DNA from: Selenomonadaceae bacterium
GTDB lineage: Bacteria; Bacillota; Negativicutes; Selenomonadales; Selenomonadaceae
DNA: 38,147 bases
NCBI GenBank assembly: GCA_017635875.1
Contig: JAGBKP010000086.1
Coordinates: 1-38,147 of the forward strand
Direction of reading: 5' to 3'
Shown here: in pieces, positions 6,110 through 9,350 of the stretch
Layout: each line of letters starts with the position of its first letter
How positions within the stretch are numbered: position 1 is the first letter of the stretch
Translations under genes and position numbers: made by a program
The notes under the pieces: generated by a model
What the model saw: the letters and a program-made list of their open reading frames with translations, nothing else
What the model was told of the DNA's origin: nothing
Databases searched by the model: none

Positions 6110-6864
6110 ATGACGGAGATAGATAAAAAACTTAATGAAATAATTAAAGCATATAATCATCTAATGAAAAACTTAATGAAATAATTAAAGCATATAATCA
6201 TCTAATGAAAAACATTGACGATGAGGCGGCTATTAGTCAAAATCGCGCTTATGGCGGTATAATTCGTTCCGGAAAAGGTAAGCTAGTCGAAAATATTGCG
6301 GAGTGTTTGGTTCGCATAGCTTGGGAAGATGTTCTTGGTCAAGACGGCGACAGAATGAAAATAAATAAGAAAAAAATGCCAATCGGTATAAGCGACGGTT
6401 ATATTGATCGTATATCCGACAATAATGTAAGCGAATATCTCAAAAAACATAATGGAGAGCTTGTTTATAAATTTGGCACGGATGTTCAGGTGTTTATTGA
6501 CGATGAATTGGTCTTACCGATTGAATGTAAAACTTATGCCGAAAATGCTATGATGAAGCGTATTCTTTTTGACGCTAAACTGATGAAAGAGGCAATGGGA
6601 ACAAACACTTATTATCTAGTACAGCTTGAGAGTCAACTTGGTGGCGATTACAGCGAATTGAAAAAAGTAACGTACGGCAGTCCCGCGACGCACGCTCTAA
6701 TGTCGTATGTTGATGTTGACCTTAAAATAATTACGTTGTTAAAAGGCGAAAGGCATGTAAAACGTCCTATTCATAAACATGAGTATTTTAAGGAATTGAA
6801 AATTTCCGAATTGCAAAAAGCGGTAAATATTTTTGCAAATGATTTGAAAAAATATGTGGAATAA
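6110..6864 (+). pseudogene. Type II restriction endonuclease gene, frameshifted by a 41-bp tandem duplication
   Basis: The ancestral gene appears to start at ATG 6110 (MTEIDKKLNEIIKAYNHL, continuing MKNIDDEAA). The present sequence has a 41-bp tandem duplication, which shifts the frame and gives TAA at 6182-6184 after 24 codons. Removing one copy restores a 237-residue protein. The 3' frame, openable from ATG 6205 as 219 residues, keeps a PD-(D/E)xK nuclease signature: an Asp near residue 93, then E107-C-K109 in LPIECKTY. It faces a DNA methyltransferase gene convergently, which supports a restriction-modification pair. No good ribosome site precedes ATG 6205, so expression is doubtful unless by reinitiation. 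The recognition sequence cannot be inferred. Confidence 0.72.
6126..6213. repeat. 41-bp tandem direct duplication inside the restriction gene
   Basis: Unit 1 (6126-6166) and unit 2 (6167-6207) are identical, followed by a third AAAAAC at 6208-6213. The total identical overlap is therefore 47 bp with period 41. The 6-bp AAAAAC at the junctions is the microhomology expected from replication slippage. 41 is not a multiple of three, so the reading frame changes. Confidence 0.97.
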
Positions 6865-6870
6865 AAGATA

Positions 6871-6914
6871 AAAAAAGCGTCAAATATCTGTTCTGATATT
6901 GACGCTTTTTTTTA
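6871..6914. terminator. Bidirectional intrinsic terminator between convergent R-M genes
   Basis: An imperfect inverted repeat (AAAAAAGCGTCAAATATC, loop TGTTCT, GATATTGACGCTTTTTTTT) has a T run on each strand. It separates the 3' ends of the restriction and methyltransferase genes. The methyltransferase stop codon (TAA, complement of 6912-6914) lies in its A/T flank. Confidence 0.85.
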
Positions 6915-8078
6915 TGTTTCTTTAAAAAGGTTTTGTTGTAAAGATTCAGAATCGGAAATTCTTTTTTCGGCAGTATTGCAATATTCTTTAGATATATCAA
7001 TACCAATGTATCTACGACCGTTTTTTTTGGCTACAACCGTTGTAGTTCCGACTCCATTAAACGGATCAAGGACTATATCGTTTTTAAAACTAAACAGTTT
7101 AAGCACTCGCTCAACAAGACTTTCAGGAAACATTGCCGGATGACCAAATTCTTTCATACGACGTTCAGGTGCTATGCTCCATTTTGCCACGACCCAAGAT
7201 TTAAATTCTTCTGCGGAAATATCGGCATCGGCGGTTTTTCCGGCTTTTTTCAAATCGCCTTTACAATATACCTCTATAAATTCCCAAGTGTATTTCAAAT
7301 ACGGACTTGACGGACTTTTCCAACTTCCGTAAGAACACATTTTACAGTTGTAATTATTTTTTTCCCAAAGTATCTCGCCTTTCCATATCATCTTGTTTTC
7401 CATAAAAAAATTACCGATAATATGATGCGCAGGAATATAATCGGAATATAGCGGTTGAACATTAACAACAAATCTTCCGCCATATTTTAAAACGCGAATA
7501 CACTCTTTAAAAATATTAAACAGTTTTTCAAAGTATGCGTTCCAACTTGCCGTGTCCTCGTGATCGTTATATTCAAGTCCAAAGTTATATGGAGGCGAAG
7601 TGAATATAATATCAATACAATTATCCGGAAGATTTTTCAAAAAATTAAGACTGTCTGCGCAGACAATTTTATTTTCAAATTCAAGAGGTAACTGATTGTT
7701 AGTCTTTGAAAAAAAGTTATCGTTGGCATAATAATGTTTGCCGCGATTTTTTTCTTTCGCTTTTCGATTTGAAACTTTCCGTTCCGCATTAAATCCGACA
7801 AAATGCCGCTTATTTCCTTTTAAGCCATAACTTCCGATTTTATCGACAATTTCAAAAGCCGCATTTTTCAGTGAATCGCTTATATCGAGAGTAGTCATAA
7901 ATTCTCGGTATTTTATCATATCGAGTTGGTACAAATTGATATTTAAGGTTTCTTCTTTAAGATTCATATAAGCGTCCGTTTTTGGAAATGCAACATTAAA
8001 CGCATTTTTTAGCAATTTACACTCATCATTGCCATATAATGAAACATTAAGTTTTTCATTACGATATGTAATCATCAT
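6912..8078 (-). CDS. DNA methyltransferase, beta-class (N4-cytosine or N6-adenine), type II R-M
   Basis: This is a DNA amino-methyltransferase, expected to protect host DNA from the partner endonuclease. Motif IV TSPPYNFGLEY (about residue 160) precedes motif I DPFNGVGTT (about 340), the order of the beta class. The SPPY form occurs in N4-cytosine enzymes and also in some N6-adenine ones. The first ~125 residues match no methyltransferase motif I can name and may help recognition. Two ATGs (8078 and 8075) follow GAGGTGA; the second has the better spacing. The gene looks intact and has its own promoter. Base composition is AT-rich compared with the flanking operons, consistent with acquisition. 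Confidence 0.93.
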   Translation of the reverse strand: MMITYRNEKLNVSLYGNDECKLLKNAFNVAFPKTDAYMNLKEETLNINLYQLDMIKYREFMTTLDISDSLKNAAFEIVDKIGSYGLKGNKRHFVGFNAERKVSNRKAKEKNRGKHYYANDNFFSKTNNQLPLEFENKIVCADSLNFLKNLPDNCIDIIFTSPPYNFGLEYNDHEDTASWNAYFEKLFNIFKECIRVLKYGGRFVVNVQPLYSDYIPAHHIIGNFFMENKMIWKGEILWEKNNYNCKMCSYGSWKSPSSPYLKYTWEFIEVYCKGDLKKAGKTADADISAEEFKSWVVAKWSIAPERRMKEFGHPAMFPESLVERVLKLFSFKNDIVLDPFNGVGTTTVVAKKNGRRYIGIDISKEYCNTAEKRISDSESLQQNLFKET

Positions 8079-8170: not shown

Positions 8171-9350
8171 TCGAAAATTGCAATAACAAATCGGACAGTA
8201 AAAAAAAATAATTATAGGATATGTGGAAGTAAGGAAATTTGTTTGTCGAATAATTCTTTGGGTGTACGATAGCCAAACATCTTTCGGGGTAAATTATTGA
8301 TAAAATTCTCTATAGTTTGTACGGTATAGTCAGACACTTCTCCAATGTTTTTACCCTTTGGAATAAAACGCCGTACTATGGAATTTTGCTTCTCGTTGGT
8401 TCCACGTTCGCCTGCAGAATACGGATGGGCAAAATACACGTTTATTCCGACAAGAAATTCTTGTAAACTGCAAAACTCGCTACCATTATCGCTGGTTACC
8501 GTTTTAAATACCCGCGGAAACATTTCGCCATATTCTTTCTTTAGTGATACAAGAGCATGTTCTACTGATTTTTTATTTTTACCATCAATTTTAATGATAT
8601 GGCGTTTACGCGTCATTCGCTCATCAAGAGTCAATAAAACTTCTCCGGTGTTTCGCTTACCTACTATCGTGTCGATTTCCCAATGTCCAAATTCTGTTCG
8701 GCTATTTACAATTTCCGGACGCTCTTCAATGCTAGCTCCTAAAATACGGCGATTTATACGGCAACGGTGCTTATGAGTATTTCGTCTAACTCTAAGTAAA
8801 AGGTCTATGTTTTTTACTTTGATAAGACCTTTGCTGATATAGTTATATAAAGTCTTAGTACAAACGGTAACATCAAACATTCCTTCTAGTTTGGCTCTGC
8901 CACAAACAGCATCGGGTGATAATTTTTTATTTATGATTTCGTTTTCAGCAAATCGTATGAACTCATTTGCTTTATCCAACTTATATGGCTTGCGACAAAA
9001 ACTACGATTTCTTTCATAAGCGCGTTGACCTGTATCAGCAAAATATACGCGACGAAGTTTAAGATTGGAGTCGAGTTGTTCAACAGTGCCGCGTTTTAAT
9101 TCTTCATATAATGTGGAGCGAGATATTCCTAATTGATTTGCTATTTGAGTCTTTGGAACTTTTTGCCGCATAAGTGCTTGAATTTCGCCTCGTTGATATG
9201 AATTTAGATGTTGAAAACGACGCTTATTTGTAGTAGAATTAGTGCTAGACATGCAGGTTGGCTCCTTTCGGCGGATTGTGCGTCACACTTATCCTACCAC
9301 AAGCCTTCCTGCTTGTCTTTTTTTGTGTCCGATTTCATTTTACAATTAAC
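8171..9350 (-). mobile_element. IS30-family insertion sequence, about 1.18 kb
   Basis: The element contains one transposase gene and imperfect terminal inverted repeats of about 25 bp at 8173-8197 and 9326-9350 (19 of 25 match; the inner 10 bp AAATCGGACA are identical). An identical 13-bp direct repeat ACACAAAAAATTT lies at each edge (8158-8170 and 9351-9363), a likely target duplication. This is longer than the 2-3 bp usual in the family, although some IS30 members make longer ones. Exact ends are uncertain by 1-2 bp. It sits between the methyltransferase promoter and the 3' end of the DUF554 gene. Confidence 0.8.
8212..9252 (-). CDS. IS30-family transposase
   Basis: This is a DDE transposase of 346 residues, normal length for IS30. 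An N-terminal helix-turn-helix (about 17-55, with KVPKTQIANQLGISRSTLYE) binds the ends. The catalytic core shows D194 in HWEIDTIVG, D255 in TSDNGSEF and the Glu (about 287) in ERGTNEKQN, followed by the typical RRFIPKG. The start ATG 9252 has AAAGGAG 9 nt upstream. The frame is complete, so the element could be active. Confidence 0.96.
   Translation of the reverse strand: MSSTNSTTNKRRFQHLNSYQRGEIQALMRQKVPKTQIANQLGISRSTLYEELKRGTVEQLDSNLKLRRVYFADTGQRAYERNRSFCRKPYKLDKANEFIRFAENEIINKKLSPDAVCGRAKLEGMFDVTVCTKTLYNYISKGLIKVKNIDLLLRVRRNTHKHRCRINRRILGASIEERPEIVNSRTEFGHWEIDTIVGKRNTGEVLLTLDERMTRKRHIIKIDGKNKKSVEHALVSLKKEYGEMFPRVFKTVTSDNGSEFCSLQEFLVGINVYFAHPYSAGERGTNEKQNSIVRRFIPKGKNIGEVSDYTVQTIENFINNLPRKMFGYRTPKELFDKQISLLPHIL

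What the first reader, a model, noticed from the sequence alone, without database searches (positions are those of the whole stretch)
6110..6864. Restriction gene switched off by a reversible 41-bp tandem duplication
Seen: exact 41-bp tandem units at 6126-6166 and 6167-6207, with a third AAAAAC. Translation from ATG 6110 stops at 6182-6184 after 24 codons. Removing one unit joins MTEIDKKLNEIIKAYNHL to MKNIDDEAA and gives a continuous 237-codon frame. The partner methyltransferase is intact. Inference: slippage across the AAAAAC microhomology could delete or regain the unit and turn restriction on and off, while methylation stays on, the safe direction for the host. Alternatively it is a one-way inactivation or an assembly artefact.
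Basis: partly seen in the sequence, partly recalled or inferred. Interest (0 to 1): 0.65.

Follow-up and report, generated by a model that had tools for sequence, protein, structure and literature searches.

The report
Restriction gene broken by tandem duplication
In this bacterium the cutting half of a restriction-modification defence system is knocked out of frame by one exact, recent 41-letter repeat near its start while the protective half is intact; losing one repeat would mend it, but nothing shows that this happens as a switch, so it is most likely an ordinary loss of function.

Summary
The frame from ATG 6110 stops at 6182-6184 after 24 codons; with one unit it encodes 237 residues. 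The protein matches PADLOC's type II restriction-enzyme profile PDLC03499, and the one-unit N terminus aligns start to start, without gaps, with a 72%-identical relative. Six intact relatives carry this N-terminal stretch, so the two-unit form is the derived, broken one. The methyltransferase is full length. Contig ends in this metagenome assembly overlap by exactly 141 bp, which points to an assembler with k = 141. That spans the 88-bp array, so an assembly artefact is unlikely. It is the only exact, non-periodic tandem duplication of 20 bp or more in the 0.92 Mb of the genome scanned. One relative (L003) is also frameshifted near its N terminus, by a different lesion, beside an intact methyltransferase. 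Reversal by slippage is possible, but no one-unit allele was found, the 6-bp microhomology is commonplace, and short frameshifting duplications are a known class of one-off loss-of-function mutation. Best reading: a recent, revertible inactivation of an R gene, not a demonstrated phase switch. Known kind: pneumococcal capsule-gene duplications.

The parts
6110..6184 (+). Truncated 24-codon frame of the endonuclease gene in the two-unit allele (ATG 6110, TAA 6182-6184)
   Evidence: Translation
6126..6166 (+). First 41-bp unit, AAAAACTTAATGAAATAATTAAAGCATATAATCATCTAATG
   Evidence: TRF and exact comparison
6167..6207 (+). Second, identical 41-bp unit; shifts the frame by +2
6208..6213 (+). Third AAAAAC, the 6-bp microhomology at the far edge of the array
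   Evidence: such microhomology is common here
6205..6864 (+). Remaining 219-codon frame of the type II restriction endonuclease, with D..ECK motif, open from an internal Met
   Evidence: PADLOC PDLC03499 E 6.7e-73, profile positions 20-240 of 241; relatives
6868..6912 (.). Imperfect hairpin with A and T runs between the convergent genes, probably a shared terminator
   Evidence: Seen in the sequence; not listed by the simple terminator scan
6912..8078 (-). Partner DNA methyltransferase, 388 aa, N6_N4_Mtase, TSPPY and DPFNGVGTT motifs, full length
   Evidence: Pfam PF01555 E 2.2e-44; alignment with relatives

Best explanation
This is a small type II restriction-modification module (endonuclease on +, convergent methyltransferase on -) whose endonuclease gene was inactivated recently by one spontaneous 41-bp frameshifting tandem duplication in its first codons, probably by slipped mispairing at the AAAAAC microhomology. 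Restriction is off in the sequenced allele while methylation can continue, a state the host tolerates. The lesion could in principle be undone exactly by slippage between the two units, so it is a revertible loss-of-function allele, but nothing shows that it evolved as, or acts as, a switch. Shown: the duplication, the frameshift, the ancestral one-unit N terminus, the intact methyltransferase, the family. Inferred: loss of activity, the mechanism of origin, recency and revertibility.
For: Exact copies with no substitution and no other lesion in the frame. One-unit N terminus colinear Met to Met with the 72% relative L009 and present in five more. Lost residues fall in helix 1 of the model of a relative. 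Methyltransferase intact. Assembly k of 141 spans the array. No comparable duplication in the rest of the 0.92 Mb scanned. Relative L003 is broken at another N-terminal place by another lesion, methyltransferase kept, as expected of independent losses. Short tandem duplications (26-116 bp) are part of ordinary loss-of-function spectra (PMC6786866), and R genes that no longer help are soon corrupted (PMC4687349).
Against: The rest of the gene shows no decay, which a switch would also predict. The open frame in the two-unit allele still contains a copy of helix 1, so leaky expression is possible. One genome only; no reads.
Confidence: 0.7

Rival explanations
1. A phase-variable restriction switch: slippage between the 41-bp units turns the endonuclease on and off in a population while the methyltransferase stays on, protecting the host.
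For: The lesion is exactly reversible in principle; the direction is safe for the host (methyltransferase intact); reversible duplications inside capsule genes are reported in pneumococcus; no further decay of the gene.
Against: Only two copies and no one-unit allele seen; the microhomology is ordinary; the closest relative L009 lacks it; the only other broken relative has a different lesion.
Confidence: 0.15
2. The gene is not fully off: a restart at Met 6205 (20 nt after the stop), or a -1 slip at GAAAAAC that reads through a duplicated helix 1, gives some enzyme, so the duplication lowers expression.
For: The endonuclease frame is open upstream of 6205 through SSNEKLNEIIKAYNHL, and a profile hit extends to 6163.
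Against: No Shine-Dalgarno-like sequence before 6205, no stable structure downstream (z 0.53), a poor slip heptamer; the internal-Met protein lacks helix 1, which all six intact relatives have.
Confidence: 0.1
3. An assembly artefact: the real gene has one unit.
For: The genome is a 222-contig metagenome assembly and no reads were available.
Against: Nine pairs of contig ends share exactly 141 bp, the mark of a de Bruijn assembler with final k = 141. The array is 88 bp and its longest internal repeat 47 bp, so a two-unit path needs junction words present in reads. Such duplications are not common in this assembly.
Confidence: 0.05

Closest known systems
Spontaneous tandem duplications in pneumococcal capsule genes (cap3A, cap8E, tts; Waite 2001, 2003, cited in PMC4022640 and PMC4243769)
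   Same: A single short duplication inside a reading frame turns the gene off and can be lost precisely.
   Different: There reversion was observed in culture; here neither switching nor a second allele has been seen, and the gene is a restriction endonuclease.
Phase-variable restriction-modification genes with simple sequence repeats (e.g. poly-G or poly-GA tracts in Mycoplasma agalactiae, PMC9465063)
   Same: A frameshift near the start of a restriction-modification gene decides on or off.
   Different: Those use many copies of a 1-2 bp unit, often in the methyltransferase; here there are two copies of 41 bp in the endonuclease only.
PADLOC REase_II profile PDLC03499; fold neighbours BbvCI subunit B, SgrAI, Bse634I, Cfr10I
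   Same: Full-length profile match; PD-(D/E)XK type fold with a D..ECK motif.
   Different: Fold similarity is weak (TM 0.4-0.5), there is no sequence match to a solved structure, and the recognition site is unknown.
Ordinary loss-of-function spectrum with 26-116 bp tandem duplications (lrp of Xenorhabdus nematophila, PMC6786866)
   Same: Size and type of lesion.
   Different: Observed arising under selection there; here inferred from one genome.

Membership tests
Type II restriction endonuclease (PADLOC PDLC03499) | Profile match over the protein | tested here: met
   E 6.7e-73 for the internal-Met protein; all six members of alignment A1 match
Type II restriction endonuclease (PADLOC PDLC03499) | Adjacent cognate DNA methyltransferase | tested here: met
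   6912-8078 (-); related enzymes next to L002, L003, L004 and L012
Type II restriction endonuclease (PADLOC PDLC03499) | Cleavage activity | not testable with these tools
   Needs an assay
Reversible tandem-duplication phase variation (pneumococcal cap3A kind) | Exact frameshifting tandem duplication in a reading frame | tested here: met
Reversible tandem-duplication phase variation (pneumococcal cap3A kind) | Both alleles seen, or reversion measured | tested here: inconclusive
   No one-unit allele in the assembly or in viral contigs; no reads or strains available
Simple-sequence-repeat contingency locus | Many copies of a short unit | tested here: not met
   Two copies of 41 bp only

The most novel reading that the evidence does not exclude
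A population-level restriction switch in which gain and loss of a 41-bp unit turns a type II endonuclease off and on while its methyltransferase stays on, so that only part of the population restricts phage at any time.
Probability: 0.12. Interest if true: 0.5.

Novelty: new member of a known kind. Interest (0 to 1): 0.2.

Why it matters
If it switched, it would be a clean case of restriction alone being phase-varied, with methylation constant, through a large tandem unit instead of a short repeat tract. As it stands it is a well-documented example of how restriction genes are silenced while their methyltransferases persist, caught before further decay.

Tried and rejected
Looked for a one-unit copy in the same genome and in viral contigs: none. 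Looked for the gene in 151 genomes of the family, 380 of the class and 398 of the phylum: only one other carrier, L009. Plasmid and phage records: none. Pfam and NCBIfam: no family. Sequence search of solved structures: only designed repeat proteins, rejected as chance. Programmed frameshift: no structured leader. A first version of the tandem scan was swamped by masked stretches and was redone. Dating by synonymous divergence to L009 failed because synonymous sites are saturated.

Full report
Observation. The window holds an exact tandem duplication of a 41-bp unit at 6126-6166 and 6167-6207, followed by a third AAAAAC. From ATG 6110 the frame reads MTEIDKKLNEIIKAYNHLMKNLMK and stops at 6182-6184. 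With one unit it is open for 237 codons. No other perfect tandem repeat of unit 10 bp or more exists in the window. In 918,562 bases of the same genome (82 further contigs plus the window) there is no other exact non-periodic tandem duplication of 20 bp or more; the other hits are short-motif arrays and one 19-bp pair.

What the gene is. The frame from the internal Met 6205 matches PADLOC's type II restriction enzyme profile PDLC03499 with E 6.7e-73, but only from profile position 20. The missing positions correspond to the residues cut off by the duplication. The best relative, L009 (another family of the same phylum, 72% identical), starts MNSVEEKLNTLIAAYNKSVKGIDNAATMSKDRAYGG and aligns from Met to Met without a gap with the one-unit protein MTEIDKKLNEIIKAYNHLMKNIDDEAAISQNRAYGG. 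L002, L004, L012, L013 and L014 carry the same N-terminal stretch. A model of the L002 protein (mean pLDDT 76.7) puts most of the lost residues in helix 1, residues 9-31. Its nearest solved folds are BbvCI subunit B and the SgrAI/Bse634I/Cfr10I group, at low TM-scores of about 0.4-0.5.

Partner and surroundings. The convergent methyltransferase (6912-8078, -) is a full-length N6/N4 type enzyme with TSPPY and DPFNGVGTT motifs. It is 56-60% identical to the methyltransferases next to four of the relatives. A hairpin with A and T runs between the two genes looks like a shared terminator. An IS30-family transposase (8212-9252) between 30-bp inverted repeats lies upstream of the methyltransferase. 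In a genome of the same genus the flagellar genes continue directly into a 264-aa gene with no such module between, and in the window's genome that gene lies on another contig. The module therefore sits at an insertion or rearrangement point.

Artefact or real. The genome is a 222-contig metagenome assembly. Nine pairs of contig ends share exactly 141 bp, which marks a de Bruijn assembler whose last k was 141 (inference; MEGAHIT behaves so). The longest repeat inside the array is 47 bp and the array is 88 bp, so with words longer than 47 a two-unit path needs junction words from reads. I take the two-unit allele as real and as the main allele in the sample. No one-unit contig was binned with it.

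Switch or scar. Slippage could remove one unit exactly, and duplications of this kind have been reported as reversible in pneumococcal capsule genes (Waite 2001 and 2003, through PMC4022640 and PMC4243769). PMC4022640 gives a reversion frequency of at most about 1e-5 for insertions up to nine bp; that longer units revert more often is from memory. On the other side, short tandem duplications are a normal class of one-off loss-of-function mutation (26-116 bp in lrp, PMC6786866). AAAAAC microhomology is nothing special here: 22 comparable pairs in this gene, 35 per kb across the window. The closest relative does not carry it. Relative L003 is also frameshifted near its N terminus, but by a single base missing from an A run and at another codon, with its methyltransferase's catalytic region intact. 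Two of eight members broken early by unrelated lesions, each with a methyltransferase kept, fits independent loss of R better than a conserved switch; eight is a small sample, and the L003 lesion also rests on one assembly. Leaky expression is not excluded, because the two-unit allele keeps an open frame through a copy of helix 1, but no strong start or slip signal is visible.

Verdict. A real, recent, exactly revertible inactivation of a type II restriction gene beside an intact methyltransferase. Ordinary as a mutation; the switch remains a hypothesis to be settled by reads.

Noticed in passing
L003:2560-2680: Restriction gene of the same family in a Hyphomicrobiales MAG is also out of frame near its N terminus (A run one base short), beside a methyltransferase with intact catalytic motifs.
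   Followed up: partly
L012:1954-2598 and L014:2342-2893: Two relatives carry a second small nuclease-like gene (FDDGIDIFYNGLRIDVKT / FDGGTDIIYAGINIDVKT) directly before the restriction gene; together with the BbvCI fold match this suggests two-subunit enzymes in part of the family. Absent from the window's genome by search.
   Followed up: partly
L013:1333-3251 and L014:1074-3611: Two relatives of the endonuclease sit beside a 5-methylcytosine type methyltransferase instead of the N6/N4 type, so the same nuclease family pairs with two unrelated methyltransferase classes.
   Followed up: partly
L035:10091-10157 (contig 20 of the same genome): An AAAAAGATCC array of about 6.7 copies just before or at the start of a response-regulator-like frame (MNIAVCDSD...); copy changes could alter its expression.
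   Followed up: no
window 8176-9347: IS30-family element with 30-bp inverted repeats (80% complementary), about 100 bp upstream of the methyltransferase start; it may affect methyltransferase expression.
   Followed up: no
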